From an uncultured Mucilaginibacter sp. (GTDB lineage: Bacteria > Bacteroidota > Bacteroidia > Sphingobacteriales > Sphingobacteriaceae): a stretch of 53,390 nucleotides of DNA. Made by a program: the position numbers and the translations under genes. Position 1 is the stretch's first letter. Each line of letters opens with the position of its first letter. The notes beneath the pieces are model-generated. The model was not told where the DNA came from, searched no databases, and saw nothing but the letters and a program-made list of their open reading frames with translations. Where the stretch lies: positions 1 to 53,390 of the forward strand of contig CAJYSL010000435.1 of NCBI GenBank assembly GCA_913777515.1, written 5' to 3'. This document shows positions 15,387-46,903 of this stretch, one piece after another.

Positions 15387-15388
15387 TT

Positions 15389-17473: not shown

Positions 17474-18614
17474 TATCAGCCGTTACCAGGCCAAAAAGCC
17501 GGCGCCGAAACCCAAAGAATCGCCGCAGCAGGAGAACCGGTTTTTTCAGCTGATGAACCGCGACATCAGTTTTGGCGGGCGCGAGCTGAGCGATAAAAAG
17601 AAAGAATACCTGTACCTGGAGCTAAGCTCGTTGCTGCAGGCGGGCATTAACCTGAAAAGCAGTTTTGAGCTGATTTTGGCCGACCAGAAAAGTGAGCAGG
17701 ATAAAAAGCTGTTTACGGGCATACAGCAGGCTGTATTGGGTGGTACCACTTTTTCGCAGGCGCTGCATAAAAGCGGGCGGTTTTCGATGTACGAGGTATA
17801 CAGCTTACAGATAGGGGAGGAGACCGGCAAGCAGATTGAAGTGTTGCAGGATTTAGCCGGGTTTTACCAGAATAAGATTAAGCAACGGCGTAAAATTGTT
17901 TCGGCGCTCACTTATCCGGGCATCGTGCTATCGTCATCGCTTGGGGCTGTGTTTTTTATGCTCAAGTTTATTGTGCCGATGTTTGGCGAAGTGTTTAAAC
18001 GATTTGGCGGGCACCTGCCCTGGATTACCCAAAAAATCATCGGGATATCAGAAGCTTTGGAGAACAATTTTTTTAAGTTTTTTGTAGTGATTGCCGCGGT
18101 AACTATCACGCTGTTTACCCAGCGCCATACCCTTTGGTTTCGTAAATGGTCGGCCAGGCTACTGCTCAAAATTCCGGTGGTGGGCAACCTGGTACAAAAA
18201 ATTTACCTGGCGCGGTTTTGTAACTCTATGCGCCTGCTCATCAGTGCGCGGTTGCCGCTGCTGCGGGCTATTGCGCTGATTAGAGAAATGATTGGTTTTT
18301 ACCCTATCGAAGACTCGCTCCGGAAGGTGGAAGCCGAAATTATGAACGGCAAATCATTACACCAGAGCATGCAGCAGTTTGGCATTTACCCCTCTAAAAT
18401 GATACAACTGCTTAAAGTAGGGGAGGAAACCGGGCAACTGGACTACTTTTTTGCAAAGGTATCAGAGCAGTACATTGAAGAAGTAGAATACAAAACCACC
18501 GCCCTGAGCAGCATGATGGAACCCCTGATTATCATTTTTTTAGGATTAATTGTAGGGGTGATTCTGATATCGATGTATCTGCCGCTGTTCCAGATGAGTA
18601 ATAGTTTTCAGTAA
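17460..18614 (+). CDS. gspF: T2SS inner-membrane platform protein GspF
   Basis: Two repeated GspF domains (LSSLLQAGINLKSSFELI...GEETGKQIEVLQDLAGFY; MRLLISARLPLLRAIALI...GEETGQLDYFFAKVSEQY); ATG 17460 preferred over 17364. Confidence 0.93.
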   Translation: MPTIDISRYQAKKPAPKPKESPQQENRFFQLMNRDISFGGRELSDKKKEYLYLELSSLLQAGINLKSSFELILADQKSEQDKKLFTGIQQAVLGGTTFSQALHKSGRFSMYEVYSLQIGEETGKQIEVLQDLAGFYQNKIKQRRKIVSALTYPGIVLSSSLGAVFFMLKFIVPMFGEVFKRFGGHLPWITQKIIGISEALENNFFKFFVVIAAVTITLFTQRHTLWFRKWSARLLLKIPVVGNLVQKIYLARFCNSMRLLISARLPLLRAIALIREMIGFYPIEDSLRKVEAEIMNGKSLHQSMQQFGIYPSKMIQLLKVGEETGQLDYFFAKVSEQYIEEVEYKTTALSSMMEPLIIIFLGLIVGVILISMYLPLFQMSNSFQ

Positions 18615-18632
18615 GCTTGATTGACCGGTCTG

Positions 18633-18821
18633 TCATAAAAAGCTTTTACATAAAAAAAGGAGCCGGGCGTTTAGCCGGGCTCCTTGGTTGTTGTTAATGG
18701 TTTGAAAAAGTACGAGAACCATTTGCGCTATTCTCCCAGCCCTATATTCTCGAGCTATTGAAGGGTACGCATGAGTTACAAAAGCAACACATAGCAACAA
18801 TGCTATTATTAGCTTTTTCAT
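18633..18821 (-). CDS. 62-aa signal-peptide ORF overlapping the immunity stop; likely remnant
   Basis: TAATG overlap with 18821; MKKLIIALLLCVAFVTHAYPS, then runs into the cassette-end element and terminator. Confidence 0.45.
   Translation of the reverse strand: MKKLIIALLLCVAFVTHAYPSIAREYRAGRIAQMVLVLFQTINNNQGARLNARLLFLCKSFL
18659..18683 (-). terminator. Terminator between gspF and RHS cassette 2
   Basis: GGAGCCGGGC-GTTTA-GCCGGGCTCC with a 7-T run on the minus strand. Confidence 0.85.
18708..18755 (-). repeat. Cassette-end hairpin element, copy C
   Basis: Minus: AGCTCGAGAATATAGGGCTGGGAGAATAGCGCAAATGGTTCTCGTACTTTTTC. Confidence 0.65.
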
Positions 18822-19456
18822 TACAGTTTTGTTAGATCTACTATTTCTGCATTCACGACCTTATCCTTACTTGTAAAAACTTGGCTATTGTTGTGATAGA
18901 AATTGAATATGACATTCTGATAGGCTTCGTGGTAAATTTTAGCCTTAGATGTAATCATTTTAAGAGATATATCATATAGGTCATTATCCAGTTCAAAAAT
19001 GGTTGAATAAACTATATAAGGTTCTTTACCCATTGTGATATAATACTCACTGTATACCACTTTCTTATCGGCATATGTTACTTCTATTGCTTGTGACTTA
19101 GCTAATCTTCCTGTACTATCTTGTTTAAACTCAGTAAAAAGCTTTTTGAGGTATTTCTTGGTATCAAGCCCTGAAGATATTTTATCTTTTTTAACAATAA
19201 CAAAATATGAGCTTGGTGCAATATTGCTTAGATCAGACATAAAAAAAAAGCTGTTTTGTTTTACAAAGCCCCATGTTACCGGGGCACAAATCTTATCTTC
19301 GTCTATATCATAACAGAGCCACTCTCTCACTGGAAGTGGTTTTCCTTGTTTTATAGTGTAATCAACAATAGTAGTATCGTTGTGTTCCAAATGTGTTGAA
19401 TTCTCAGAACACCCCACTAGTAAGCTCGCTACTAATAGTATCAGTGTATTTCTCAT
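18821..19456 (-). CDS. Candidate immunity lipoprotein for B2 toxin
   Basis: 211 aa with lipobox-like LLVGC, directly downstream of B2. Confidence 0.6.
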   Translation of the reverse strand: MRNTLILLVASLLVGCSENSTHLEHNDTTIVDYTIKQGKPLPVREWLCYDIDEDKICAPVTWGFVKQNSFFFMSDLSNIAPSSYFVIVKKDKISSGLDTKKYLKKLFTEFKQDSTGRLAKSQAIEVTYADKKVVYSEYYITMGKEPYIVYSTIFELDNDLYDISLKMITSKAKIYHEAYQNVIFNFYHNNSQVFTSKDKVVNAEIVDLTKL

Positions 19457-19469
19457 TTTAATACATTTA

Positions 19470-22400
19470 TCACTTTTTGTCTACCGTGAAACCTAGTCTA
19501 AAAGTATGTGTAACCGTAGTGCCAGCAGATGGATTATGAAATATATTAGAAGTTTTTGTTGGCGTATAGGAAACTTCCGCTTTCACCCCCACATCAGTTT
19601 GAGAAGTTCTTCCTGAACTACCAGAAGCGTTTTTAACAGATACATATGCTGCGGCACCGGCACTCACTGTTTCACTTGAATTCTTAAGAGACTTACCAGC
19701 TGAAACTTCCGTTGTATTTGATACCTTACCAGTACTTATATTCGTTTTGTTACTTACTTTCAAATCCACACCTCTAACAGTAGTAGACCCTTCAACCTTA
19801 GTTTGTTGGCTAACGTCTGTTGTGTAAGTAACCTTCACTATTGGCCCTTGAGGCGTATTTTGACTATTCATTGCCATAAATCCTCCAAAATTAGTTCTAA
19901 TCGTGGTTGTGTTTGTTACATTAACAGATGTGGTAACCTTTAATTCTCCTGCTGAAGCTTGACTGGTTTTCGTATCTGTCGAGGTTGAAAAACTTGCAAA
20001 AAATCTATCGACAGCGGCTCCAGAAGCTTGAAAATACTGCCTAAATCCTTCCGCAATATATGCCCAAGGGTGTCCCATGCTTTGAGGCCCCGGTTGGGTC
20101 TGCATACCATCTGGGTCAAATTTCCCAATTGGATCATTTTCTGCATAATTATATACTGACCATCGCCTGTTATCTTCTGCTAACGGATCGAGGCTCGTCC
20201 ACCTTGCAATTACGGGATCATAGAACCTCGCGCCATAATCGTACTGGTTAGCCAGGTCGGTTTGCACTTCCTTCCCATTATAAAGGTAGCGGTTATTGTT
20301 GGCATTGTCATACCCGCCTGTCGGCTTACGCAAACCGAAAGAATAGTACTCGTCTTCCTGGATTACGCGCGCCTGTCCCGAGTTGCTGTCAAAGCTTACC
20401 CTGGTGTTACCTAGGTGGTCTTTTAAGTTGTACTCGTAGCGGTAAGCGCCTCCGGTGAGCTTGGCTCTGCCTTCCTCGGTGCTCACAAAGTCAATCACCC
20501 CGTTGTGATACACCACGCCCAATATGTAGTCCCAGCTACCGTCCGAGCCCTGGTTGTGCAGCTTGTTGCCTGTAGCATCGTACTGATAAGTGGCCAGCGT
20601 ATTGTTGCTATTGGCCTGGGTCACTCTCTTAGGCAGGTTGAGCAGGTTGTACTCCAGACTTCGGCCTTGCCCGTCGCTGGTCGCGTTACCGTTGGGGTCA
20701 TAACCGTAGTTGCGGTTGGCGTAGCCGCTTACCGAGCTCAGTTGGTTACCCGCATAGCTGTAGCTCAGGTTACCGGCATCGCCCCTGGCAAGGCTCTGGA
20801 TGTTGCCTAACTGGTCATAGCTGATGGTCTCGTCCAGGTGCCCGCCGGTAGAAGAGGCCTGCAAAAGCCTGTTGAGCTTATCATAGCTGTAATCAAACTG
20901 CCTGTTGCCCGGGCTGCTGACCTTGGTAGTCAGGTAGCTCATCGCTGAGATGTTACCGTTCCACTGCTTTTTAGCGTTGTCGCCATGATCTTCATAAGTA
21001 AGCTGCTCACTAAAAAGTGACGATGACATGCTTTTTGTCCAGCCGCGCTCGTTGTAGGCGTACTGGATGGTTTGTAAACCGTTACCTACGTTCTTGCTTT
21101 TAAGCTGTCCCACCTCATTGTACTCCAGGCGGGAGAGTAGTACCTCACTGTCCGAGTTCATCGTCTGGTAAGTATCCAGCTTGCGGCCCATGTGGTCGTA
21201 CACGTAGCGGTTGGCAATGGTTACGCTATTGCTGCCGCTGCCGTTATGCACGCGGTTGGTTGTCAGCAGCTCGCCGGTGATATCATTGTAGGTATTGCTC
21301 ACCAAATCGGTACCGCCCAAATGGTTCTGGCTTTTGCTTTGGATGACACGGCCCTTGGCATCGTAGTAGTTTACCGCCCATAGCTTGGCTCCATAGCTGC
21401 CGTCAGCGTTCAGCACCGTGGTTTGCGTACCGGTGAGAAGACCGGTCGGGCTAGCCTGGTAACTTCCCCCATTACTGAAAGGATTGCCCGGGAAGCCATA
21501 GTCATCATAGTAATTTACGGTCAGGAACTTGATGTTGCCGTTTTCCTCACCGGCCATTGGATGGGTTCGTATCGTATAACCATCCGACCTGCTGCCGGTT
21601 CGTTCTTCCCATATCGGCCCGCTCATGGTATTAATGTAATCGTTTTGCAGCGTTTGACGGGACATGGTGTTATTGTTCTGCACACCGGTTAAAATCACCC
21701 TTCCTAAGGCGTCGTATTTAACCCAGCTCCATTGGTGGTTGTTGCGCTGCACGGCATCCTGCGTGTAAACTACCTGGTCAAGTTTATTGTAAAGGATGTA
21801 CTCCCAGCCCTTGCCCGGCAGCTTCTTTTCGATGAGCCGCTTTCTGCCATCATACCGGTACTGGTAGCAAAGCTGGTCTTGGGTACTCTGGCCCGGAGTG
21901 CCGTTATCGGCCCCGGTGCCCGGCGGCAATACAAAGCTCAGGTTACCCAAATCGTCGTACACGTAGTAGGTGCTCAGCATTTCGATGCCGTTCTTGTTGT
22001 TAAACGTGCGCTTGCATACTACTCTGCCTTCCTTGTCTTTGTACTCATGCGTCTGGCCGGCCAGCCCATCGGCATCCGTCCAGTTCTCGTCTTTGAGCAC
22101 CGTCAGGTAAAGCTCACCTGCACTGTAGTTCTGATTGGAAACAAGGTTTCGTTCAATACTTCCTGCACTTGGCACCTCGGCGTTATATAGCCTGACGCTA
22201 TAACTGCCTGTGGCCTCGTTACTGCGGTACTCGGTGCGCACGGTGTGGCCTGAGTTGTTCAGATTAGCGTCATAAGGCTGCCAGCCTTGTCCCGGGGCGC
22301 CCTGTTCCAGCGGGCGGTTCAAAGGAGAGGGTTCAAACACCGTTTTACTGTACGGGTAGCCGGTGTTTTTATAACCCTGGCCGCTCTGGCTGTAAAAGGT

Positions 22401-22958
22401 GGACTGCTCGCCCAAGAGCGCACCTGATCGGTAAGAGCCCGGCGTGCCTGCAGCAGTGGTATAGGGCAAAAACTTTTGTGCCTCCCGGCTAAAGGCATCA
22501 TAGGCAAAGGGCTGCACTACGTCTTTAGTACCATCCGGGTTGCCTTTAACCTGCACGGTCTGCAGTGGCCTGCCCAGCCCGTCAAAGTAAGCGATGCTCT
22601 GCATCAGATCGCAGTTCGCAGCACCACTGCCGATAGTCTGCATGGCTGTGCGCGGCACATAAGTCACCACATAGTTCTGGTTAGCACTGGGCGTAGCTGC
22701 CAGCGGTGTGCAGACAGCGCCCGAGGATACAAAGATGCGCACGCTTTGCCCTGCACCAGGGGTGATGTAGGTATTGGGCTGCAAAATCACTCCCGAAGGA
22801 TGGCTGATCTCCTGGCTTGAGGTAATCGTCTGGCCGCTGATTACTCGCTGGGCCAAAGCCGATGGGCCTGCCAAGGCAGTCAGCACCACCATAGCCAGTT
22901 TGCCCCAACGGTTAGCGATGCTCCGTTTGGATAGCTGTCTAAAAAAATATGTTGTCAT
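19470..22958 (-). CDS. RHS-repeat 'B' protein (B2) with beta-rich Ser/Thr-rich C-terminal toxin candidate
   Basis: Signal peptide; AYFDGLGRPLQTVQVKGNP; YD repeats; ARFYDPVIARWTSLDPLAE...FDPDGM, then a unique C-terminus. Confidence 0.87.
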   Translation of the reverse strand: MTTYFFRQLSKRSIANRWGKLAMVVLTALAGPSALAQRVISGQTITSSQEISHPSGVILQPNTYITPGAGQSVRIFVSSGAVCTPLAATPSANQNYVVTYVPRTAMQTIGSGAANCDLMQSIAYFDGLGRPLQTVQVKGNPDGTKDVVQPFAYDAFSREAQKFLPYTTAAGTPGSYRSGALLGEQSTFYSQSGQGYKNTGYPYSKTVFEPSPLNRPLEQGAPGQGWQPYDANLNNSGHTVRTEYRSNEATGSYSVRLYNAEVPSAGSIERNLVSNQNYSAGELYLTVLKDENWTDADGLAGQTHEYKDKEGRVVCKRTFNNKNGIEMLSTYYVYDDLGNLSFVLPPGTGADNGTPGQSTQDQLCYQYRYDGRKRLIEKKLPGKGWEYILYNKLDQVVYTQDAVQRNNHQWSWVKYDALGRVILTGVQNNNTMSRQTLQNDYINTMSGPIWEERTGSRSDGYTIRTHPMAGEENGNIKFLTVNYYDDYGFPGNPFSNGGSYQASPTGLLTGTQTTVLNADGSYGAKLWAVNYYDAKGRVIQSKSQNHLGGTDLVSNTYNDITGELLTTNRVHNGSGSNSVTIANRYVYDHMGRKLDTYQTMNSDSEVLLSRLEYNEVGQLKSKNVGNGLQTIQYAYNERGWTKSMSSSLFSEQLTYEDHGDNAKKQWNGNISAMSYLTTKVSSPGNRQFDYSYDKLNRLLQASSTGGHLDETISYDQLGNIQSLARGDAGNLSYSYAGNQLSSVSGYANRNYGYDPNGNATSDGQGRSLEYNLLNLPKRVTQANSNNTLATYQYDATGNKLHNQGSDGSWDYILGVVYHNGVIDFVSTEEGRAKLTGGAYRYEYNLKDHLGNTRVSFDSNSGQARVIQEDEYYSFGLRKPTGGYDNANNNRYLYNGKEVQTDLANQYDYGARFYDPVIARWTSLDPLAEDNRRWSVYNYAENDPIGKFDPDGMQTQPGPQSMGHPWAYIAEGFRQYFQASGAAVDRFFASFSTSTDTKTSQASAGELKVTTSVNVTNTTTIRTNFGGFMAMNSQNTPQGPIVKVTYTTDVSQQTKVEGSTTVRGVDLKVSNKTNISTGKVSNTTEVSAGKSLKNSSETVSAGAAAYVSVKNASGSSGRTSQTDVGVKAEVSYTPTKTSNIFHNPSAGTTVTHTFRLGFTVDKK

Positions 22959-22987
22959 GTTAAAAGGCGGTTGGTTTTAGATAAGGT

Positions 22988-25900
22988 TTATTGGTTCTGG
23001 TAGTGATAGTCATGCTGCTTGAGGATATTACCCTGGCTGTCTTTGATCGTCTTCAACCGCTGGAAGCTGTCATACTCATAGTATGTTGTCTCTCCTTTGG
23101 CATCTGTTAGTGAGGTCATCCCTACTAGTGGCTTATAAGTATATCCGGTAACTTGCGAGTAAGGAAGGTTACCCCTCAGTCTTGTGAAAAGGGCCAGTAA
23201 GTCGGCAGTGGATGGCAAAGCATTATTTTTTAAATCTTCTATATACGTGTTGCCAAGAAGCGATTCAATTGCTGAGAAGGTAACGTTTTCAATTTTAGCA
23301 ATCGGATACTGACTTTTATAGCTCCATAAATAACAAGAGTGCACACCCTGATCGGGATGCTGTTCTAACAAATTACCCTCCTGTGTGTATCGGTCAAAAT
23401 ACCCTCTAATTTTATAATCATTACTGAATGAAATACCTCCGTTTACTACAGATGATGATAAAAAGCTTGCATTAGGAGCTTCGGGCTCGATAGCATAGAC
23501 TTTATCTACCAACGGTTGATCGGTTTTGAAGGTTCTAAACAACGAACCTGCAGTGCCAATAAGATTGACACCGGCTTTATCGTATATCTTGGTTGTCTCT
23601 TCTACTGGCGTTGATATCACATTGTTGTCTTGCAAAACTTTGATGCCTTTAGATACATCGTCAGTTGCGGTTATACCTTGATAATCGGGCGCATATTTAT
23701 ATTCTTTTATAATTGATTTTCCATTGGCTTCATACCCTATTTTTGTGGGAAAGGTGTGCCGAAATGAATAAGGGTCGGCACCATCATAAGCATAATAAGT
23801 TGATTTAGAAGCCGAGTCGATAATGTTTTGTCCGTTAGCATTATAATTAATAATCCTCTCGTACCCTATGGTATAATCTACTCCTTGTAATTCCGAGTAA
23901 GGAATGTTTACAATACGTTGTGCATCTGGGTTCTTGATTATGTAAAAAGGATCATCTGCTTCAATCGCAGATTGAGGTATGTCCTGATTGTAAGTTACGA
24001 CTTCTTTTATGGGATAAAATTGGACTAACGGACTTTGGATAGGTACGAAAGAATAGTTAACAGCTTGTACAATAGAAAAATTTGCCCCATCAGATTTGTA
24101 AATTTCTTTTGCTTTAAGACGTGGTGATGCAAATCCATGGTCTAGTAGCGTATACTTTTGGTTGATATTGCCAAATATTCCTGAATTAGCTGAATAGTAT
24201 TGATACTGATTAGTAAGAGGGAGATTAAATCTGTATACAGTTTTGCCTAAGGGCAGTCCGGCGTTATTTACGTCTTGCTCTTCTACATACGTATACCAAA
24301 CAGGGCAACCATCAGTATAAGATATCGAATTATTGGGTGCGCTTAAAAAGTTTCTTTCTCTTGCCAGAAGTGGATTCGACCGTAATTCAAATTTTGTTGA
24401 ACCGTCTGGTTGTATGGTGCGGCTGTAGTCAATGTACATATAGTGCTCTACCATATAATCTTCCATTCTAGGAATATTGTAAGGCAAACCTATGCCCGTT
24501 TGTGAGTTTCCGTCTATTCCGTATGTGTAGGTTTTGGTCACAGGTGGGTTAACGCCATCACTGGTTTTCAAGGTTTTTATCCGCAGACCACCTGCCGGAA
24601 ATATACCTCCCCCAACTTCTGTAAGTCTCTTTTCATCGTAGTAGCGATTTGCCTCAAATGTAAATTCGCTATAACCGCCTGTAGGATATTTTATTTTTGA
24701 TAAGACATACTTTTTCATCCAAAACTCATCCGTTTCACGTACCGCTGCACCAATTTCAGTTGATGATACTAGGTTATCTATTTGTCCGTTTCCGTCACGC
24801 TTGGTAAGCGCAACAACAGGAACATCCATCCAGCGGGGAACCGGCGAGTTATTTGATGTTGCACCGTTGTAATATCCCCAGTGATCCCTTGCGGACATAA
24901 TAGGATTTGGTACTCCGATTCCATCTTGATACTCAAAGGTGTAATTTATTGGTTGCTGGTTATCAGAACCGCTGATTTCTATTCGGTCTAAGTGCTTTCT
25001 GGTCTCTCCGGCATAATTACTGTAATAAAAAGATGCTTTTTTAATCAAATTGCCTTGTTGGTCAAAAATCGAGATGTCTGTTAAAAAAGTATTAGCTGCA
25101 TCGTAATTAAATACTACTCGACCGCCTTTGAACTGTACATTATTTAAATTTTTTCTGGTGAAAGTGTAACAAGTTTGCTGGTAAAAAGGTTGATTTCCCT
25201 GAGTTACGTAATCATAATTTGATATGTAAGCCAGCGTTCCTGCAGCAGGTTCAAAGCGCTTCAGTTGATTGTTTTGATATATGTTATAGATTTGGTCAAA
25301 ATGTGGTTCGCCAGGATTCATGTTGCCAGACATATAAGCAATGCTGTCTACAATCTTCATTGATCCTGCAGTTGAACAAGTTGTCAAATCAGGAGCATCT
25401 AAATAATTGAAAGTAATTTTATCGCTAAGCAGTTTATTGGTTGGAAGTATCTCTGAGAGCATCCAAGCAGAATAATAGCCTTCAAACTTGTTATATTCTA
25501 TATTCGAGCCGCCATATTTAAACGTCTGCCCTTTATCGTTAACAATTGTCATGACAAGATTCGGCCTATCGTATGCCAGTTTTATATTCTGTTGTGGAAA
25601 AAAAACTGGATTTATAAGTTGAGAGTTTTGTTGGGCGTCTTCCGTCGGTGTGAATATAAACCTGCCGCCCGACTCATTTTTAACGCCTGAGTTGTAAAAA
25701 AACAAATCAGGCTCGGGATCCAAATAAGTGAGCTGTGTATAGTTATTCAACGAATAGTTAGGTATTCTTACCGCAGCAGACTCGTCGACCTTGCCTCTTA
25801 CGGTTCTGGATACTCGCCCTCCTGCATTTAATGTCCATCCCAAGCCAACAGGGTAGGACACGTCGGTCGTTTTAATCCCTGAAGCATGGTAGCTTACAGA

Positions 25901-26119
25901 AATAGGTATAACAACGTCGCCTGATTTAATTTCGTAAATAGGAATATTTATATCTGGTACACCGGTATGCAAACTAACAGGGTAGTCTTTGTACCTTTCA
26001 AAGGCGGCAGATTCCGGAGATGAATGGATGACATTAACCGGCTGGTATGATTGTGCCTGTAAAGTATAATTTATTAGCGTTATGAACGCTGTAAATAAAC
26101 TGGTTCTTAAAAGATTCAT
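22988..26119 (-). CDS. RHS/YD-repeat 'A' shell protein (A2)
   Basis: MNLLRTSLFTAFITLINYTLQAQ signal; DINIPIYEIKSGDVVIPISVSYHASG; ends TTYYEYDSFQRLKTIKDSQGNILKQHDYHYQNQ. ATG 26119 preferred over 26158. Confidence 0.83.
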   Translation of the reverse strand: MNLLRTSLFTAFITLINYTLQAQSYQPVNVIHSSPESAAFERYKDYPVSLHTGVPDINIPIYEIKSGDVVIPISVSYHASGIKTTDVSYPVGLGWTLNAGGRVSRTVRGKVDESAAVRIPNYSLNNYTQLTYLDPEPDLFFYNSGVKNESGGRFIFTPTEDAQQNSQLINPVFFPQQNIKLAYDRPNLVMTIVNDKGQTFKYGGSNIEYNKFEGYYSAWMLSEILPTNKLLSDKITFNYLDAPDLTTCSTAGSMKIVDSIAYMSGNMNPGEPHFDQIYNIYQNNQLKRFEPAAGTLAYISNYDYVTQGNQPFYQQTCYTFTRKNLNNVQFKGGRVVFNYDAANTFLTDISIFDQQGNLIKKASFYYSNYAGETRKHLDRIEISGSDNQQPINYTFEYQDGIGVPNPIMSARDHWGYYNGATSNNSPVPRWMDVPVVALTKRDGNGQIDNLVSSTEIGAAVRETDEFWMKKYVLSKIKYPTGGYSEFTFEANRYYDEKRLTEVGGGIFPAGGLRIKTLKTSDGVNPPVTKTYTYGIDGNSQTGIGLPYNIPRMEDYMVEHYMYIDYSRTIQPDGSTKFELRSNPLLARERNFLSAPNNSISYTDGCPVWYTYVEEQDVNNAGLPLGKTVYRFNLPLTNQYQYYSANSGIFGNINQKYTLLDHGFASPRLKAKEIYKSDGANFSIVQAVNYSFVPIQSPLVQFYPIKEVVTYNQDIPQSAIEADDPFYIIKNPDAQRIVNIPYSELQGVDYTIGYERIINYNANGQNIIDSASKSTYYAYDGADPYSFRHTFPTKIGYEANGKSIIKEYKYAPDYQGITATDDVSKGIKVLQDNNVISTPVEETTKIYDKAGVNLIGTAGSLFRTFKTDQPLVDKVYAIEPEAPNASFLSSSVVNGGISFSNDYKIRGYFDRYTQEGNLLEQHPDQGVHSCYLWSYKSQYPIAKIENVTFSAIESLLGNTYIEDLKNNALPSTADLLALFTRLRGNLPYSQVTGYTYKPLVGMTSLTDAKGETTYYEYDSFQRLKTIKDSQGNILKQHDYHYQNQ

Positions 26120-26247
26120 TAATTGATAAATATTAAAATGAATTGTTGACTCTCGCAAATGGGTATGTCCGGTAATAAAAAATACCGCAAAGTACTTTTG
26201 AATATTTTAACCTTAATGGATTTAAAAAAGTGTTATAATATTCTGTG

Positions 26248-30355: not shown

Positions 30356-30356
30356 T

Positions 30357-34266: not shown

Positions 34267-34271
34267 GGCTT

Positions 34272-35483: not shown

Positions 35484-35484
35484 A

Positions 35485-37231: not shown

Positions 37232-37277
37232 GATTTAACAAAACCCATATCAAAACTACTGAATTAACTCAAACTTG

Positions 37278-38270
37278 ATGAAAAAGCAACTTTTGTCTCT
37301 ATTGAGCCTGATGGGCTGCATGGCAGCATCTGCACAAATCAACTCCCCTAATGGTAACAACCTTTTTTACTACAACGGTCTTGCCGATATCACCTTTCGC
37401 TTCCAAGAACGAGGTAACGGTGGACGAGCTTTTGTGCATGACGGAGGTAACGCACTAACACTAAATTATGAGGGTGATTTTACTGGTGGAACTAAGATAG
37501 CCAGCTGGTTTCATGTCGCCAATAATGGCAACTTCCGTGCTAACAGTTGGCAGCCTTACGGCTCTGCAAGCGATGACTTTTATGTTGATGTTGAGCCTGG
37601 CACCCGTTTACTGAGAACACGCAATTGGAATACTGGCTCTCCTAATATTGCCGCGACAGGTATTCATACAGGAACAGGCCTGTTTGAAGGCTACGTGGGC
37701 GTAGGTACTACGTCGCCTATGAACGGGTTGCATGTATTCAGTTTGAATAATCCTCAAGGCGGCTCTATCCGGTTCGGACATAGCGGAAGCGATGATGCCG
37801 TATTATCTTTCGGATATAACGGGATAGATCAGGACGTATTAAAGATCGGGAAATTCTCGCATAACTCAAATGCAAACGAAACTACATTCATGACTATGAA
37901 AACCAGCAATGGTAATGTAGGCATAGGTACACTGGATCCCGACGAAAAGCTAACCGTAAAAGGGGGCATTCATGCCCGCAGCGTAAAGGTAGATTTAAAC
38001 GGCCCGCTGGCCGATTATGTATTTGAGGCTGATTACAAGCTGCGCTCCTTGACCGACCTGCATACCTATATCAAACGCTTCCATCACCTACCCGAGGTGC
38101 CATCGGCTCAAGAAGCGCAAAGCAACGGGCTCGACCTGGGCACCATGAATCAGGCGCTGCTCAAAAAAGTAGAAGAGCTGACGCTGTACGTCATTCACCA
38201 ATCCAAAGAAATCAAGCAAATGAAAACCCAAATTTTAAAACTAAAGAATAAACCACAAACTAAAAAGTAA
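37278..38270 (+). CDS. Fibre-like secreted protein, WPDYVF-type C-terminal domain
   Basis: NVGIGTLDPDEKLTVKGGIHARSVKVDLNGPLADYVFEADYKLRSLTDLHTYIKRFHHLPEVPSAQE. Confidence 0.8.
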   Translation: MKKQLLSLLSLMGCMAASAQINSPNGNNLFYYNGLADITFRFQERGNGGRAFVHDGGNALTLNYEGDFTGGTKIASWFHVANNGNFRANSWQPYGSASDDFYVDVEPGTRLLRTRNWNTGSPNIAATGIHTGTGLFEGYVGVGTTSPMNGLHVFSLNNPQGGSIRFGHSGSDDAVLSFGYNGIDQDVLKIGKFSHNSNANETTFMTMKTSNGNVGIGTLDPDEKLTVKGGIHARSVKVDLNGPLADYVFEADYKLRSLTDLHTYIKRFHHLPEVPSAQEAQSNGLDLGTMNQALLKKVEELTLYVIHQSKEIKQMKTQILKLKNKPQTKK

Positions 38271-38271
38271 C

Positions 38272-39126
38272 ATGAAAAAACTTTATCTGATGACGCTGCT
38301 TGCATTGCTTTTAATACCATCAGCCTTTGCTCAGTTAACAGTCGAAAATTCAACTGATGCTAACAATCCACTATCTAGTGGCTCTTGGCTTTGGTTTAGA
38401 ACAGGAGGATATGCAACTTCCATTGTAGAAAATTGTGGATTGAATTTATTGGGTTCAAATATTCAGCCGGTTCAGGTACGTAATACCAGCTTGTTAGTAG
38501 GCTATGCATCCGGCTGTAACAACTACGGGCAGGGTAACGCAATGATAAGCGGTAATGTTGGTATAGGTACAACCGCCCCCACAGCAAAGTTAGATGTCAA
38601 CGGCATTATTCAAACATACAATAAAGACCATAACGGTGCCTATTGGGACAATTTACGGATGTGGTCTGATGGGGAGAGCAGCCATATTGAGTCGAGTGGA
38701 GACGAAAATGGACTGTACTTTAAATCAAACACCGCAGGTAAAATCCTTTTTTTAAGTAATGTGGGTATTGGTACCAGCGATCCAAAAGGGTATAAACTTG
38801 CCGTAGCCGGCAATGCCATTGCCGAATCGGTCACGGTCAAATTGCAGGGCCAATGGGGCGACTACGTGTTCAAGCCCTCCTATAAACTCCGGCCACTCAG
38901 CGAAGTAAAAAGCTTCATTGCTCAAAACCAGCACCTGCCCGAAATTCCATCAGCGAAAGATATTGGTGAATCGGGCATTGACTTGGGTGAAATGGTTAAG
39001 CTACAGATGAAAAAGATTGAGGAACTCACATTGTACCTGATCGAAAAGGACAAAGAGATTAAAGAGATGAAAACCGAAATCTCACAAATGAAAAGAAATT
39101 CAAAACACTCACAGACTAATAGATAA
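38272..39126 (+). CDS. Fibre-like secreted protein, WPDYVF-type C-terminal domain
   Basis: C-domain nearly identical to 28493-29452 (KLQGQWGDYVFKPSYKLRPLSEVKSFIAQNQHLPEIPSAKD). Confidence 0.8.
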   Translation: MKKLYLMTLLALLLIPSAFAQLTVENSTDANNPLSSGSWLWFRTGGYATSIVENCGLNLLGSNIQPVQVRNTSLLVGYASGCNNYGQGNAMISGNVGIGTTAPTAKLDVNGIIQTYNKDHNGAYWDNLRMWSDGESSHIESSGDENGLYFKSNTAGKILFLSNVGIGTSDPKGYKLAVAGNAIAESVTVKLQGQWGDYVFKPSYKLRPLSEVKSFIAQNQHLPEIPSAKDIGESGIDLGEMVKLQMKKIEELTLYLIEKDKEIKEMKTEISQMKRNSKHSQTNR

Positions 39127-39127
39127 T

Positions 39128-42100
39128 ATGCAAAAGTATTACTTGTTAAACAAATCAATTTGCTCTTTAAATAGGTTGATGGCGCCAGGAGGAAAAAACG
39201 GGCTGTCAATAGCAATATTATTCATTTTGCTCCAATTATCAGCATTTGGACAACAAAGCAATGCTGTAAATATAGCCTCTCCAAATGCTCAAAGTTTGTT
39301 TATTGCCCGTGATTATCCGGTTTCAAATTTTACCGGAACGCCGGATATAGGTGTACCGCTGTATTCAGTTAAACTAAATGGTTTAAGTGTGCCCATCGCC
39401 CTAACTTATAATCATAATGCTGTAAGAGCTGATACATACCCAGGTTGGGTAGGGTTGGGGTGGAATCTTACAACTGGAGGCGCCATTACACGGGTTGTGA
39501 ACGGAAACGCAGATGACAGTCAATATTCCGATATGCAGGTTTTAGCCGCAACTAACGATAGAACATGCGGTTTTTATTGGAATTACAATTCTTTGGCACC
39601 AAACGATTGGAGTTCAACAGACAAGTTAACTAAAAGCACGTCAGATTATAAAAACTATTCAGACTATTTTTCATACATGGAATACACTAGAACGGTTAAA
39701 GATTACGCCCCTGATGAGTTTAATTTTTCGTTTTTAGGCTACTCCGGGAGTTTTTACTTAAATCATGAGAAACAGTGGAAAGTACGTTCATCTCAACACT
39801 TCAAAGTGGAGGAATTTACTGGCAGTTTAAACCTTTACGAATCAAATTATTTTAAAGGCTCAACCGGCTTTATCAAATTCATCTTGACAGATGATGCCGG
39901 GGTAAAGTACGTTTTTGGTGAAGATCAGAACGCTATTGAGTTCTCTACGCCGTTGTTTCAAAAAGACGAGCCCCCTACTGTTGCTAAGACCTGGAATCTT
40001 GTATCCATTATATTTCCCGACAAACAGAGTATAAAGTTTAATTACAAAAGGGGGAATGCCATTAGTTATTTGGCACCAAATTATTTCAGTATAACTAATC
40101 CGGGAACCACTAGTGCTTTTAAAAATTACGGGCTTTCCGGTACAACTGTCTATCCTTCTTACCTGGAAGAAATAATTACTCCTTTTGAGAAAATCCGCTT
40201 TTACACTTCGCCCACTAAACAAATTTCCTACACTGCAGGAAGCTTAACTACCGAAAATAATAGTTTTAATGGGAGAAAAAACAATTATGACAGGCAGGTT
40301 CAATTCGATTCAAGAGGTCGCTATAATTCAAAATATGATCCATATTTTGACTTTAGGTCTGTTTTTGTTTACAGGGATCCATCAAATTACCGAAAACTTG
40401 ATAGTATTAAACTAGACAGTAATATCACCATACGGTTAAATTACAATAACTTGTTGACTGAAAGGTTGAAGTTACTTAGTGTCAGTAAAGTAGGACGCTC
40501 AAGTCAAACATCTGCTGAAAATTATTCTTTCACATACAATAGCTTACCGGCAAATCAGACTTTTAGTTATCTGCATTATAGTACCGACTATTGGGGGTAT
40601 GAAAATGGTAAGCAAGTTGATTTATCGAGTTATGCAAATTACTTGGTTTCAAAGCAACCTGATTCGAATTATACCAAAGCCGATATTTTAAATACAATTA
40701 TTTACCCGACCGGAGGTTACACCACTTTTAAATACGAGCTTAACTCTTACCTGAAATCTGTTCAAAACCCACGAAACCTTCCTTTAACTGTATTAAGTAA
40801 AGATTCTGTCTGTGGTGGTCTCAGAATAAAGCAAATAAGCAACTTTGATACAAATGGATCACGGATTGCTTTTAAAAATTATTTTTACGACAAAGGCCAT
40901 TTTGATACAAACGGCAGCCATCTGTCATCTGGCGTTTTGGGGGGGCCATCGGCCGAATCCTGGGTTGATGAGGCTTATAGTTCCTTCAAGGGTGTCTCTT
41001 ATTCTAATCTTCAACCATCGAGTTATAACAGCTCCGGAAGTCATATAGGTTATTCGGAAGTAACCGAAGAATCCAGTGACGGAGGCTACAACGTTTATAA
41101 GTATTCGAATTTTGATAACGGATCGGTTGACCCATACATGGATGAAAGTTTTATAAATCAGGTAACAAACTTAACCACTAAGGATTATGATAAAGCGTAC
41201 ACCTCTCATTCTTACGAAAGAGGGCGGATGTTAAGTGTTACTGCATTCAACTCTGACAAAACAAAGGTTAAAAAAACGGAGATCAGCTATACGCATGTTT
41301 CGCCGGCAGGACAAGAAGAATTTGTAAGAGCATACTATACCTATACTTCACTTGGGACAAACATGTCCAGGTCTTATAAAATCAATACTTTTTCTTTTTT
41401 GAAAAATAAAGAAATAGTGACTGATTTCTTGACATCGTCAGATTCGTTGCAAACAACAACCAATTATCAATATGATTCCAATTTTTTAAACGTAAAAAGT
41501 TACAATATAAAAAATAGTAAACAGCAGACCTTGGAAGTGACTAATCGTTACCCTAACGATATGGTAAATACAGCAAAAGATATTTTGGGTATTTATACAC
41601 GTATGGTTGATTATCATATCACTGCTCCGGTAGTCGAGTCTATCAAAAAATTGGATGGCTCGATAGTTGAAAATAATCAGTCGCGTTATTATTGGGAGCC
41701 AACTCCTAATTTGATTTTGCCTTGGAGTATATCAACTTATTACGGTGACAGTGTCTTGGTGAGAAAAGTCAACTTCGAATACAACAGTGGAGGTAAAACC
41801 GCCTCAATCATAAAAAATAATTTTCCGCAGGCATCTTATATTTGGGGATATAATAATCAGTACCCGGTAGCCGAGGCAAAAGGGGCACAAGTGAACGAAA
41901 TATACCATGCCGGATTTGAAGAAGTAAGAGACTTTCCGGACTGGGCAGTAACTCTTGACAGTACACACACGCACCAGGGCCGCCTGGCTGCCAAAATGTA
42001 TAACGGTAATGCACCCAACCCGGGCAGCGAATTAACGGGACATAGCGACACCTGGCTGCAGATAGACTTACAGGGTAAATCCAAACGTTTTCATTATGCC

Positions 42101-42505
42101 GGCTGGGTATATAGCGATGGCCCAACAGCGAGGATTCTGCTGTTTATGAAACGTACAGGCGAGCAAGCATACTTCACTTATGTAGATGGTTTAACCAGCA
42201 GCAAGGTAGGCCAGTGGGAGTACCTGGAAAAAGACTTTGAGGTACCTGCTGATGTAAGCACCCTGAACCTGCGCATTGATAACAATGGCGGTGGTAACGT
42301 ATGGTTTGATGACTTACGACTGCACCCATCCGAAGCGCAGATGACGACCTACACGTATGATCCATTGTCTGGTATGACCAGCACTACTAATGGCCGTGGT
42401 GAAACAACATATTATGAATATGATGAGTTCCGCCGCTTAAAAAGGGTATTGGATCAAAATAAAAAGGTGCTGAAACAAACCACCTATCACTATCAAAACC
42501 AGTAA
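39128..42505 (+). CDS. RHS/YD-repeat 'A' shell protein (A3) with jelly-roll-like insert
   Basis: DIGVPLYSVKLNGLSVPIALTYNHNAVR; FEEVRDFPDWAVTLDSTHTHQGRLAAKMYNG...LNLRIDNNGGGNVWFDDLRL; ends TTYHYQNQ. Confidence 0.84.
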   Translation: MQKYYLLNKSICSLNRLMAPGGKNGLSIAILFILLQLSAFGQQSNAVNIASPNAQSLFIARDYPVSNFTGTPDIGVPLYSVKLNGLSVPIALTYNHNAVRADTYPGWVGLGWNLTTGGAITRVVNGNADDSQYSDMQVLAATNDRTCGFYWNYNSLAPNDWSSTDKLTKSTSDYKNYSDYFSYMEYTRTVKDYAPDEFNFSFLGYSGSFYLNHEKQWKVRSSQHFKVEEFTGSLNLYESNYFKGSTGFIKFILTDDAGVKYVFGEDQNAIEFSTPLFQKDEPPTVAKTWNLVSIIFPDKQSIKFNYKRGNAISYLAPNYFSITNPGTTSAFKNYGLSGTTVYPSYLEEIITPFEKIRFYTSPTKQISYTAGSLTTENNSFNGRKNNYDRQVQFDSRGRYNSKYDPYFDFRSVFVYRDPSNYRKLDSIKLDSNITIRLNYNNLLTERLKLLSVSKVGRSSQTSAENYSFTYNSLPANQTFSYLHYSTDYWGYENGKQVDLSSYANYLVSKQPDSNYTKADILNTIIYPTGGYTTFKYELNSYLKSVQNPRNLPLTVLSKDSVCGGLRIKQISNFDTNGSRIAFKNYFYDKGHFDTNGSHLSSGVLGGPSAESWVDEAYSSFKGVSYSNLQPSSYNSSGSHIGYSEVTEESSDGGYNVYKYSNFDNGSVDPYMDESFINQVTNLTTKDYDKAYTSHSYERGRMLSVTAFNSDKTKVKKTEISYTHVSPAGQEEFVRAYYTYTSLGTNMSRSYKINTFSFLKNKEIVTDFLTSSDSLQTTTNYQYDSNFLNVKSYNIKNSKQQTLEVTNRYPNDMVNTAKDILGIYTRMVDYHITAPVVESIKKLDGSIVENNQSRYYWEPTPNLILPWSISTYYGDSVLVRKVNFEYNSGGKTASIIKNNFPQASYIWGYNNQYPVAEAKGAQVNEIYHAGFEEVRDFPDWAVTLDSTHTHQGRLAAKMYNGNAPNPGSELTGHSDTWLQIDLQGKSKRFHYAGWVYSDGPTARILLFMKRTGEQAYFTYVDGLTSSKVGQWEYLEKDFEVPADVSTLNLRIDNNGGGNVWFDDLRLHPSEAQMTTYTYDPLSGMTSTTNGRGETTYYEYDEFRRLKRVLDQNKKVLKQTTYHYQNQ

Positions 42506-42531
42506 ACATTTTATCAACCGCCCTTTAATAT

Positions 42532-45500
42532 ATGAAAACATATCTCATGCAGTTATATCCTGTTACTCTCAAGCGCAGGCTAGCTGCCGCTGTACTATCT
42601 TTAGTATTGACAGTTCCAACGGCTTTTGCTCAAAAAATCATTAAGGACGTAACGTTAACTACAAGCCAGGAAATATACTATCCAGGTATTATTATTATTA
42701 AACCAAATACTGTTATTAGCCCAACCGCCGGCCAAAGTATTCGTATTTACACCTCGTCGGGGCCCGTTTGTGCAACGCTGGCAGCAAATCCAAGCGCAAA
42801 TCAGAACTACATAACAACTTTTGTTCCCAGACAAGCCTTAAATGCTATTGACAATAATGTTACCAACTGTCAGGTAATGCAAAACGTTGCTTATTTTGAT
42901 GGATTAGGCAGACCATTGCAGACCGTGCAGGTAAAAGGTAATCCATCAGGTACACGCGACGTAATACAACCGTTTGTTTACGACACATACGGCAAAGAAT
43001 CTAAAAAGCTGTTGCCCTACACCACCGAAACCACAACGCCTGGTACTTATCGGGCGGGTGCCTTAACAGGTGAACAGTCGGACTTTTACAGCCAGAGCGG
43101 ACTTGGGTATAAAAACACAGACTATCCTTTCAGCCAAACGGTGATTGAACGTTCGCCACTAAACCGACTGCTTGAGCAAGGCGCGCCAGGTTCGGGTTGG
43201 CAACCTTATAATACAGCTATTAGTAACTCCGGTCATACCATCAGAACCGAGTACCGCAGCAATGCGGCTTCGGGTTCTTATAGTGTAAGAAAATATAAAG
43301 CCGATGCCGCAGCAGGAAGTGTAGAACGTGAACTTTCTTCGACGGAAAATTACGCAGCAGGAGAACTTTATTTAACAGTGCTGAAGGATGAGAATTGGAA
43401 GGAAACTGATGGGTTGGCCGGCCAGGCTCATGAGTATAAAGACAAGGAAGGACGTATCATATGTAAGCGTGTGTTTAATAATAACAATGGCAGCATTGAA
43501 ATGCTGAGCACTCATTACGTGTATGATAAATATGGCAATTTATGCTTTGTGTTAACCCCAAAATCCGGGGCCGACAGCGGCACACCGGGCCAGAGCACCC
43601 AAGACCAGCTTTGTTATCAATATCGTTACGACGTAGGAAACCGTCAGGTGTTAAAAAGGTTGCCTGGTAAAGGCTGGGAAGAAATGATTTATAATAAATT
43701 AGACCAGATAGTTTTTACCCAGGATGCTGTACAGGCTGGCAACCAGCAACGCAGCTTTATAAAATACGATGCCCAAGGCAGAGTAATTATGACCGGAGTA
43801 GAGACAGGGCACACTTTATCCCGCGAGCAGGTACAGGAAATTGTTGACAACCATGCAGGACCGCTTTGGGAAACGCCTGATCCTAGTCAGTCTTCCGGTT
43901 TTTTTGGTTATACTAACAATGCAGTGCCTGCCAATACCAATACCATGAAACCGATGGTGGTGAACTTTTACGATGATTATCGGATGATTGATACCCGTCC
44001 TTTTGGGGAGCCGACAGGTAACCAGTCAGTACATACCACAGGTCTCTTGACCGGATCTTTAGTAAAAACCCTGGACGATGTTAACGGCAACACTCGTTAC
44101 TGGACGGCCTTTTACTATGATCATAAGGGCCGAGTTGTGCAGAGTAAAAGCCAAAACCATTTAGGCGGTACGGATCTGATGAACAATACCTATAACGAAA
44201 TCACAGGCGAATTGCTGACTACTAACCGCGTACATACCGGAAGCGGCAGCAACGCAGTTACGATTACCAATCGCTACACTTATGACCACATGGGCCGTAA
44301 ACTGGATACTTACCAGAAGATGAACTCGGATGACTCGGTGCTGCTTTCGAGGTTGGAATATAACGAGGTAGGCCAGCTCAAAAACAAAAGCTTAGGTAAC
44401 GGACTGCAGGCCATCCAGTATGCTTACAACGAGCGCGGCTGGATGAAGAGCATGTCGGCTCCTTTGTTTAACATGGAGCTGCGCTACCAGGATGCTTTGA
44501 ATGGTGTTGCAGAACAATGGAATGGTAATATTAGCAATCAGGTGTATACCAATGGTAACAGCAATACCTTTAATTACACTTATGACAAGCTAAATCGTTT
44601 ACTCAAGGGCTCGGCAACCGGCATGAGCGAAGAGTTGCAGTACGACATGATGGGGAACATCACCAGCTTAAAACGCGACGGCACCAGTAGAGACTATACC
44701 TATTACAACGGCGGGTTAAGTAATCAACTAAAAGCCGTTGCTAATTTGACCACTGTAGATTACGTTTATGACGGAAACGGGAATGTAACCACAGATGGCA
44801 GACTGGATAAGACCATTACCTATAATGTACTTAACCTGCCGCAAACCATTACCAAAGGTGGTACCAACGTAACCTACCTGTACGACGCTACAGGGAGAAA
44901 ACTGCGCAAAACAAGTAGCGGCTCTACAACAGATTATGTAGGTGGCATCCAGTATAAAGCGGATGGCACGATTGAGTTTGTACGGACTGAAGAAGGTTTG
45001 GCCAAAAGATCGGGCAGCAGCTATGCTTACTATTACGATCTCAAGGATCACTTGGGTAACGTAAGGACCACATTTTACCGTAACCCGAATAACGGCCGTA
45101 TTGACACCTTGCAGCGCGACAACTATTATGCCTTCGGCTTAAGGAAAATTGGCACCGTTACCGGAAATAACAAGTATCTTTATAATGGAAAGGAACTGCA
45201 GGATGAAACCGAGCAGTATGATTACGGCGCAAGATTCTATGATCCTACTATCGCCAGGTGGATAAGCGTGGATCCATTGGCTGAAAAAGGAAGGCGTTGG
45301 TCTCCTTATAATTATACATTTAATGATCCGATTCGATTTACTGATCCAGATGGAATGTGGCCAGACGAAAATAATGACGATGCAGGAGGCCCTCCGTCAT
45401 CTGGAGACTTTGCTAACGCTTTAGCCATTGATATTCTATCCGTAAAGCACTCGCTATACAATATTTTTCTGAGACCATTTACCAATAAAGAGGCAACCTT

Positions 45501-46017
45501 TGTCAAATCAAAAGATGGAGAGTATTGGGAAACAGGATTTGTGAAAGCAAACAACGGATTAGCAAAAGGGACTGCGTTATTTGCTTTAGATTTCTTAAAT
45601 GTGCTTTCTTTTGGAAAAGGAGAAGGGGTCTTTTTAGCAGAGACTAATGCTAAAGCAAGTGTAAGTAATTTAGCTAATAAAGTAATTAAGCAAATGGATC
45701 GCTTCGGTGATGTCGCTAATTTAAATTTTGGTGATTCAAAAACTGGTTTATTGCATATATTACAACGTCATTCTGTTGATGGATTTAATAATATTCCAAA
45801 GGGAGATCTGTTCCCGAGCGGCACAACTCCTAAAGAAATTGTTAATGCAATTAATGATGTTTACACTAAAGGTACAAGAGTAAGTGATCCTAAAAGAGTT
45901 ATGCAGACTTTTGAAAAAAGGATTAAAATTCATGGCGAATCTGACAATTACCGATTGATCATTGACACAAAAAAGGAGAATGTCGTTACATTTTTTAAAA
46001 TTGGGGGGCTCAATTAA
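42532..46017 (+). CDS. RHS-repeat 'B' protein (B3) with candidate RNase-type C-terminal toxin
   Basis: Signal peptide; AYFDGLGRPLQTVQVKGNP; ARFYDPTIARWISVDPLAEKGRRWSPYNYTFNDPIRFTDPDGM; C-terminus with GLLHILQRHS and YRLIIDTKKENVVTFFKIGG. Confidence 0.87.
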   Translation: MKTYLMQLYPVTLKRRLAAAVLSLVLTVPTAFAQKIIKDVTLTTSQEIYYPGIIIIKPNTVISPTAGQSIRIYTSSGPVCATLAANPSANQNYITTFVPRQALNAIDNNVTNCQVMQNVAYFDGLGRPLQTVQVKGNPSGTRDVIQPFVYDTYGKESKKLLPYTTETTTPGTYRAGALTGEQSDFYSQSGLGYKNTDYPFSQTVIERSPLNRLLEQGAPGSGWQPYNTAISNSGHTIRTEYRSNAASGSYSVRKYKADAAAGSVERELSSTENYAAGELYLTVLKDENWKETDGLAGQAHEYKDKEGRIICKRVFNNNNGSIEMLSTHYVYDKYGNLCFVLTPKSGADSGTPGQSTQDQLCYQYRYDVGNRQVLKRLPGKGWEEMIYNKLDQIVFTQDAVQAGNQQRSFIKYDAQGRVIMTGVETGHTLSREQVQEIVDNHAGPLWETPDPSQSSGFFGYTNNAVPANTNTMKPMVVNFYDDYRMIDTRPFGEPTGNQSVHTTGLLTGSLVKTLDDVNGNTRYWTAFYYDHKGRVVQSKSQNHLGGTDLMNNTYNEITGELLTTNRVHTGSGSNAVTITNRYTYDHMGRKLDTYQKMNSDDSVLLSRLEYNEVGQLKNKSLGNGLQAIQYAYNERGWMKSMSAPLFNMELRYQDALNGVAEQWNGNISNQVYTNGNSNTFNYTYDKLNRLLKGSATGMSEELQYDMMGNITSLKRDGTSRDYTYYNGGLSNQLKAVANLTTVDYVYDGNGNVTTDGRLDKTITYNVLNLPQTITKGGTNVTYLYDATGRKLRKTSSGSTTDYVGGIQYKADGTIEFVRTEEGLAKRSGSSYAYYYDLKDHLGNVRTTFYRNPNNGRIDTLQRDNYYAFGLRKIGTVTGNNKYLYNGKELQDETEQYDYGARFYDPTIARWISVDPLAEKGRRWSPYNYTFNDPIRFTDPDGMWPDENNDDAGGPPSSGDFANALAIDILSVKHSLYNIFLRPFTNKEATFVKSKDGEYWETGFVKANNGLAKGTALFALDFLNVLSFGKGEGVFLAETNAKASVSNLANKVIKQMDRFGDVANLNFGDSKTGLLHILQRHSVDGFNNIPKGDLFPSGTTPKEIVNAINDVYTKGTRVSDPKRVMQTFEKRIKIHGESDNYRLIIDTKKENVVTFFKIGGLN

Positions 46018-46439
46018 TGTTTAAAATTTGTTTAAGTGAAAATCATTATGAAGCAGATGAAAATTCATCTTTAGCGTTTGGTTGGTTCGAATTGAATAAA
46101 AGTGAACTTACCGTGTATTTTTTTAGAGATAGAAAATGTATGGTTTTTTTAACTTTATATACTCTCATAGAATCGCTACTTAAATTGAAGATCAAGAACG
46201 AGACCCAAAGGTGGGTAGGAGAAGATAACGGTAAAGTGTTTTTTTTAAATAAACAAAAAACAATGCTTACAATTGAAGATAAAGACGTTAAACTTACAAC
46301 TGACTTTAGCGTTTTTTTGGACGCTGTTGTGGCCGAAGCAAAGTCTTTACTACGTGATTCGAAAACAAGGAACCCCGACATTATAGAAGAAGGGCCATAT
46401 ATTGATTTAGAATCATTAGTCTCTGATTTTGATAATTAA
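46017..46439 (+). CDS. Candidate cytosolic immunity protein for B3 toxin
   Basis: 140 aa, no signal peptide, TAATG overlap with the B3 stop. Confidence 0.65.
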   Translation: MFKICLSENHYEADENSSLAFGWFELNKSELTVYFFRDRKCMVFLTLYTLIESLLKLKIKNETQRWVGEDNGKVFFLNKQKTMLTIEDKDVKLTTDFSVFLDAVVAEAKSLLRDSKTRNPDIIEEGPYIDLESLVSDFDN

Positions 46440-46650: not shown

Positions 46651-46705
46651 ACGCAAGAAGATAGGGTCGAATAAAAGCGCAAATGCTTCTCATACTCTTA
46701 GAGCG
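46651..46705 (+). repeat. Cassette-end hairpin element, copy D (degenerate)
   Basis: ACGCAAGAAGATAGGGTCGAATAAAAGCGCAAATGCTTCTCATACTC aligns with copies B and C. Confidence 0.5.
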
Positions 46706-46711
46706 ATTAAC

Positions 46712-46750
46712 AACAAAGCAGCCTGGCGTTTAGCCGGGCTCCTTTGTTGT
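46712..46750. terminator. Long-stem terminator of RHS cassette 3
   Basis: ACAACAAAGCAGCCTGGC-GTTTA-GCCGGGCTCCTTTGTTGT; about 16 of 18 bp pair. Confidence 0.8.
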
Positions 46751-46776
46751 ATGAATATCTTTTTCAACTGTTACCC

Positions 46777-46903
46777 AAGCTTATTAAAAACTATTACTCG
46801 TTTCGAACAGCGGCAGATACATCGAAATTAGAATTCCCTTACAATCAGTCTTAAAAAATTATGACCAGCGTTTCCATCACGCCGCTCAAGGTTGTACTTT
46901 TTT
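46777..46903 (-). pseudogene. gspF 3'-end fossil (copy 2, strongly decayed)
   Basis: Minus strand ...TCGATGTATCTGCCGCTGTTCGAAACGAGTAATAGTTTTTAATAAGCTT matches the gspF 3' end with substitutions and indels. Confidence 0.85.

What the first reader, a model, noticed from the sequence alone, without database searches (positions are those of the whole stretch)
18476..46903. All three RHS toxin-immunity cassettes end tail-to-tail in a gspF 3' end plus shared terminator
Cassette 2 (minus, ends 18.6 kb) converges on intact gspF. Cassette 1 (plus, ends 12.5 kb) converges on the recent fossil. Cassette 3 (plus, ends 46.4 kb) converges on an old decayed fossil. In each case the order is immunity gene, hairpin element, GGAGCCCGGC terminator, gspF tail on the opposite strand. 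With a conserved RHS core on one side and this tail on the other, the variable toxin and immunity genes are bracketed by homology. This looks like a cassette-exchange mechanism using a secretion-gene tail as anchor. I know of no described system of this kind.
Basis: partly seen in the sequence, partly recalled or inferred. Interest (0 to 1): 0.85.

Follow-up and report, generated by a model that had tools for sequence, protein, structure and literature searches.

The report
Toxin cassettes dock at gspF end
In Mucilaginibacter, interchangeable antibacterial RHS toxin-immunity units sit against the end of a secretion-pump gene (gspF), and leftover copies of that gene's end beside extra toxin units look like scars of past toxin-unit swaps between related strains.

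Summary
All three RHS toxin-immunity units in the window end tail-to-tail against a gspF 3' end: the intact gene for unit 2, fragments for units 1 and 3. It is not a local accident: seven other genomes of the genus hold eight more stray gspF ends, ten in all. Eight of the ten face an RHS toxin/immunity unit, one faces an orphan immunity gene, one an unidentified small gene. Tail lengths vary (about 55-650 bp).

Whole-unit segmental duplication is rejected: RHS cores are saturated at fourfold sites while the tails are far younger. In the three best-preserved tails, differences from the resident gspF are all or nearly all synonymous (6:0, 16:0, 27:4), so tail and resident gene were two functional gspF alleles joined by recombination. 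In four genomes the shared sequence stops within a few bases of the gspF stop codon.

Best reading: gspF is a homology arm at a toxin-unit docking site, and stray tails are scars of one-sided (homology-facilitated illegitimate) recombination. The tail is not a general cassette end: 37 other sampled RHS loci, and three RHS cores elsewhere in this genome, lack it. The wider pattern, RHS units clustered at this type II secretion-like locus, may matter more.

The parts
3447..12521 (+). Unit 1: tail-fibre-like 3447-4184, RHS N-part 4229-7911 (two ORFs), ORF 7925-8422, RHS1 8394-11978 (C-terminal tip lipase/esterase-like), immunity lipoprotein 11985-12521
12743..12795 (+). Hairpin element (GCGCGAGAA...TTCTCGTGC) behind immunity gene 1
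12810..12840 (+). Terminator GGAGCCCGGC...GGCTCC-T6, unit 1
12876..13066 (-). Stray gspF 3' end (fossil 1); in the inner ~150 nt all 6 counted codon differences from resident gspF are synonymous, one 11-bp deletion
13283..18614 (+). T2SS-like operon half B, ending in intact gspF 17364-18614
18652..18683 (-). Terminator, unit 2
18698..18757 (-). Hairpin element, unit 2
18821..29452 (-). Unit 2 (home unit, converges on gspF): immunity 18821-19456, RHS2 19470-22958, N-part 22988-26158, three tail-fibre-like proteins 26248-29452
29936..36015 (+). T2SS-like operon half A: gspG-like pilin, prepilin peptidase A24, gspE, gspD, PilN-like, small protein
36323..46439 (+). Unit 3: tail-fibre-like 36323-39126, N-part 39128-42505, RHS3 42532-46017, immunity 46017-46439
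46654..46705 (+). Hairpin element, unit 3
46718..46746 (+). Terminator, unit 3
46779..46901 (-). Old, decayed gspF 3' end (fossil 3), frame broken

Best explanation
The gspF end of a T2SS-like locus is the home docking site of RHS toxin units in Mucilaginibacter. Different strains carry different units (toxin tip plus immunity gene, or a whole RHS unit) against the same gspF stop codon, flanked by conserved RHS core on one side and gspF on the other. When a DNA fragment carrying a unit and adjoining gspF sequence enters a cell, homologous recombination on one side (in gspF or in the RHS core) plus illegitimate joining on the other adds a new unit without breaking gspF. It leaves a truncated second gspF end beside the older or relocated unit. 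The stray tails are these scars and then decay. Shown: positions, generality across species, tail younger than the RHS split, tail and resident gene being separate functional alleles, homology ending at the stop codon, arbitrary truncation points. Inferred: that the process is homology-facilitated illegitimate recombination with strain-to-strain DNA, its direction (donor or recipient tail), and that toxin turnover is what selects for it.
For: Stray gspF 3' ends exist in G000 (2), G082 (2), G085, G095, G036, G025, G002 and G102; the reversed-pattern control gives 0 in 121 genomes. All converge on an adjacent gene: RHS toxin/immunity in 8, orphan immunity in G002 (homologue of an immunity gene in this genome's own orphan array), an unidentified lipoprotein-like ORF in G102. 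Long tails are closest to their own genome's gspF (the old G025 tail is an exception). Fourfold-site identity of RHS core pairs is 0.33-0.41 against 0.59-0.74 for tails. Differences between tail and resident gene: 6 syn/0 nonsyn (window fossil 1), 16/0 (G082), 27/4 (G085); P 0.0017, 1e-8, 1.5e-8 against a freely decaying copy of the resident gene. Homology ends at or within a few bases of the gspF stop codon in G082, G085, G025 and G095. Tail lengths vary and junctions hit unrelated DNA, including a truncated MFS-like gene (G095) and a truncated histidine-kinase-like gene (G002), both named by eye. The RHS tree does not group units by tail.
Against: No two strains of one species were available, so no event is caught with both ends known. 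No clear microhomology was shown at the junctions. In the window the stray tails are inverted relative to gspF, which needs an extra inversion or a separate insertion. Fossil 3 (9 syn/11 nonsyn) is compatible with simple decay of a resident copy (P 0.23). RHS2 and RHS3, and the two G085 units, are sister sequences, so an old duplication of units is part of the history.
Confidence: 0.62

Rival explanations
1. Segmental duplication: a whole RHS unit plus the neighbouring gspF end was copied within one genome, and the copies then diverged.
For: RHS2/RHS3 and the two G085 RHS cores are sister sequences.
Against: RHS cores are saturated at fourfold sites while tails are 78-90% identical overall. 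RHS1 groups with another species' home RHS, not with RHS2/3. Synonymous-only tail differences reject a decaying resident copy in three cases.
Confidence: 0.12
2. Tail as a living exchange arm: stray tails are maintained and repeatedly recombine with gspF (gene conversion, or inversion of operon half B between the inverted tails at 12.9 and 18.6 kb), so the secretion gene acts as a switch that changes which toxin unit faces it.
For: Inverted 91% repeats flank operon half B, and inversion between them would keep gspF intact. The inner ~150 nt of fossil 1 is 95.6% identical while its flanks are lower. Operon half B faces different ways relative to half A across the genus.
Against: Tails decay (fossil 3, G025, G095), most RHS units have none, and no inverted isolate of the same species was seen.
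Confidence: 0.12
3. Site-specific integration with the gspF 3' end as attachment site, as integrative elements do at tRNA genes.
For: The gene end is regenerated and a displaced copy lies distally (G082, G085).
Against: Tail length varies from about 55 to 650 bp, there is no constant crossover sequence, no recombinase gene was recognised in the window (not searched for specifically), and the window tails are inverted.
Confidence: 0.05
4. Unrelated rearrangement or assembly noise: random breakage near gspF carries its end along.
For: Several hosts are MAGs (G082, G095; the window genome has 473 contigs); breakpoints are arbitrary.
Against: Present in named isolates (M. lacusdianchii, M. pedocola, Mucilaginibacter sp. 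Bleaf8); copies are diverged, so not repeat mis-joins; every tail has the same tail-to-tail orientation to its neighbour.
Confidence: 0.09

Closest known systems
Rhs C-terminal displacement with orphan tips (Jackson et al. 2009, PMC2935791)
   Same: Conserved core, swappable toxin tip plus immunity gene, displaced old tips downstream carrying core fragments. Contigs C35/C248 of this genome show the same orphan arrays.
   Different: The published model uses circular intermediates and core homology only. Here a neighbouring secretion gene is the far boundary and leaves recognisable tail scars, with arbitrary ends that fit linear DNA better.
Homology-facilitated illegitimate recombination proposed for T6SS effector-immunity arrays in Vibrio cholerae (PMC5361080)
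   Same: One homologous anchor, one illegitimate end, additive modules, older modules displaced.
   Different: In that paper the anchor is the upstream part of the module and the scars are immunity genes; here the downstream gene gspF is involved and its 3' end is the scar.
Integrative elements that target gene 3' ends (general knowledge)
   Same: Host gene end kept intact while a displaced copy lies at the far end of the insert.
   Different: No fixed attachment sequence, variable tail lengths, no integrase found.

Membership tests
RHS polymorphic toxin systems | RHS core with Rhs_assc_core motif | tested here: met
   TIGR03696 E 2e-14 to 3e-20 in all three
RHS polymorphic toxin systems | Unrelated C-terminal toxin domains behind conserved cores, each with its own small gene | tested here: met
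   Window tips share no similarity with each other; unit 1 tip lipase/esterase-like (weak, E 7e-4), unit 3 tip nuclease-like (weak), C35 orphan tip Ntox44
RHS polymorphic toxin systems | Toxicity and cognate immunity | not testable with these tools
   needs expression assays
C-terminal displacement by homology-facilitated illegitimate recombination | Additive arrays with displaced older modules | tested here: met
   Tandem units in G082, orphan arrays C35/C248, double scar at G036 home site
C-terminal displacement by homology-facilitated illegitimate recombination | One homologous and one illegitimate junction in the same event | tested here: inconclusive
   Arbitrary junctions seen but no before/after strain pair
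Integrative element with a gene-end attachment site | Constant crossover site and linked integrase | tested here: not met
   Crossover site: tail lengths about 55-650 bp, not constant. Integrase: none recognised beside the units, no dedicated search run
Type II secretion system | GspD secretin, GspE ATPase, GspF, pseudopilins, prepilin peptidase | tested here: met
   scores are below equivalog cut-offs, so T2SS versus another type IV filament machine is open
Type II secretion system | Secretes the linked RHS proteins | not tested
   linkage only

The most novel reading that the evidence does not exclude
A T2SS-like machine in Sphingobacteriaceae is the exporter of a family of RHS toxins, and its gspF end is a selected docking site: strains exchange toxin units there with gspF as a homology arm, leaving datable gspF scars that record past toxin repertoires.
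Probability: 0.25. Interest if true: 0.8.

Novelty: new variant of a known kind. Interest (0 to 1): 0.58.

Why it matters
How toxin tips are swapped in RHS systems is an old question, with models (circles, one-sided joining) that rarely leave traces. Here the swaps leave a tag of known origin, reading frame and rough age, so direction, donor allele and timing of events become testable from sequence. The strong linkage of RHS units to a T2SS-like locus also proposes an export route for RHS toxins in Bacteroidota; my literature searches found no paper describing it.

Tried and rejected
Whole-unit duplication and a site-specific attachment site are disfavoured. A gene-conversion patch in fossil 1 is suggestive only. 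Mosaic gspF along its length: sliding identity shows no clear break. Rfam finds only a tRNA at 2959-3032, so the hairpin element is no known RNA family. The genome-wide degenerate hairpin pattern failed even on the known copies because its spacing was wrong and says nothing. One row of the hairpin alignment (C35_b) was mis-cut. Inspection of the junctions by eye gave no consistent motif.

Full report
OBSERVATION. The window (a Mucilaginibacter-type contig; relatives are named, the window's own name is not shown) holds three RHS units and a two-part T2SS-like locus. Unit 1 (+, ends 12521) faces a gspF fragment at 12876-13066; unit 2 (-, ends 18821) faces intact gspF (ends 18614); unit 3 (+, ends 46439) faces an older fragment at 46779-46901. 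Between each immunity gene and the gspF end lie a hairpin element and a GC-rich terminator. In the rest of this genome the hairpin/terminator was found only behind orphan RHS immunity genes on contigs C35 and C248, where RHS core fragments, not gspF, follow. So hairpin and terminator belong to the toxin-immunity module; the gspF tail belongs to the site.

GENERALITY. A 29-base gspF-end pattern (3 mismatches) was searched in 121 genomes of the genus. Forty have it; the reversed control gives none. Ten stray ends lie in eight genomes. Eight face an RHS toxin/immunity unit on the opposite strand (window 2, G082 2, G085, G095, G036, G025). In G082 the units are in tandem with a tail after each. 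G002 has no gspF at all but keeps a 55-bp gspF end facing an orphan gene whose homologue is an RHS immunity gene in this genome. G102's tail faces an unidentified lipoprotein-like ORF on a short contig.

LIMITS OF THE PATTERN. Forty further RHS loci were fetched from gspF-bearing genomes. Three proved to be home sites next to intact gspF; the other 37 have no tail at nhmmer E<1 (tails under about 50 bp could be missed). The tail is therefore not a standard end of RHS cassettes.

AGE AND ORIGIN. Long tails are most similar to the gspF of their own genome (G082 90%, G085 82% against 77% for the next, window 85% and 78%; the old G025 tail is an exception). RHS cores within a genome are saturated (fourfold-site identity 0.33-0.41) while tails are 0.59-0.74 at the same class of sites and 78-90% overall (15-34 sites per tail, so small samples). 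Unit and tail were not duplicated together. Codon by codon, the differences from resident gspF are 6 synonymous and 0 non-synonymous in window fossil 1 (inner ~150 nt), 16/0 in G082 and 27/4 in G085. Even if the resident gene accepted only synonymous changes and the copy decayed freely, these have P of 0.0017, 1e-8 and 1.5e-8 (uniform mutation assumed, transition bias would soften this without reversing it). Fossil 3 is compatible with decay (9/11, P 0.23). The young tails thus come from a second functional gspF allele, that is, from recombination between strains or close species; gene conversion is the alternative.

JUNCTIONS. In G082, G085, G025 and G095 similarity between tail and home copy ends at the gspF stop codon, give or take a few bases: two gspF alleles had unrelated modules beyond the stop. 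The other end is truncated anywhere and abuts an operon leader (window fossil 1 before the first gene of operon half B, G085 before gspG, G082 before the next unit), an RHS core fragment (G036), a truncated MFS-like gene (G095) or a truncated histidine-kinase-like gene (G002). At the G036 home site two nested gspF-end/terminator scars lie between gspF and the present immunity gene, which reads as repeated displacement.

MECHANISM. These facts fit additive, one-sided recombination at a home site: gspF or RHS core gives homology on one side, the other side joins illegitimately, and only outcomes that keep gspF whole survive. That process has been proposed for effector-immunity arrays (PMC5361080); Jackson et al. 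proposed circles for Rhs (PMC2935791). Arbitrary truncation favours linear DNA but does not exclude circles. Direction (donor's or recipient's tail) is undecided. In the window the two gspF ends at 12.9 and 18.6 kb form an inverted pair around operon half B, so an inversion that keeps gspF intact is possible but was not seen.

LINKAGE TO THE SECRETION LOCUS. All 48 gspF-positive genomes carry RHS cores, against 38 of 73 gspF-negative ones (Fisher P 3e-10, not corrected for phylogeny). RHS cores lie in the held flanks (up to 10 kb) of 19 of the 36 closest gspF loci and 16 of 44 more distant Bacteroidota loci, including Sphingobacterium, Pedobacter and Flavobacterium. Genome density is about 27 cores in 26 Mb in five sampled genomes, so about 2-3% of such windows would be expected to hold one. 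RHS1-3 start with signal-peptide-like sequence (by eye). Export through this machine is a reasonable but untested inference.

VERDICT. Observation confirmed; interpretation partly right. A new variant of known toxin-tip displacement, with unusually readable scars.

Noticed in passing
13283-18614 and 29936-36015: A T2SS-like locus in two halves, contiguous in some relatives (G130, G019, G025) and inverted relative to each other in others; RHS units sit between or beside the halves in many species.
   Followed up: partly
G000 contigs C35 and C248 (L093, L094): Orphan RHS arrays: core fragments with toxin tips (one Ntox44-like) and immunity genes, each followed by the hairpin element and usually a terminator.
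   Followed up: partly
46440-46650: Two further degenerate hairpin-like repeats before the intact one behind immunity gene 3, possibly scars of older modules.
   Followed up: no
L034 1400-1664 (G036 home site): Two nested gspF-end/terminator scars next to the motif GCTTGCGGTAGCA, which also borders the other G036 tail.
   Followed up: partly
L091 9270-9780 (G095): The sequence GGGATGATGAACATCCCGACCAACAGG occurs on both sides of the stray gspF tail, one copy imperfect; nature unknown.
   Followed up: no
3447-4184, 26248-29452, 36323-39126, 47041-49954: About ten paralogous tail-fibre-like proteins with a shared C-terminal segment (..KVEELTLYLI..) accompany the RHS units; function unknown.
   Followed up: no
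L087 10571-11851 (G082): Transposase-like ORFs (by eye) between immunity gene and stray gspF tail.
   Followed up: no
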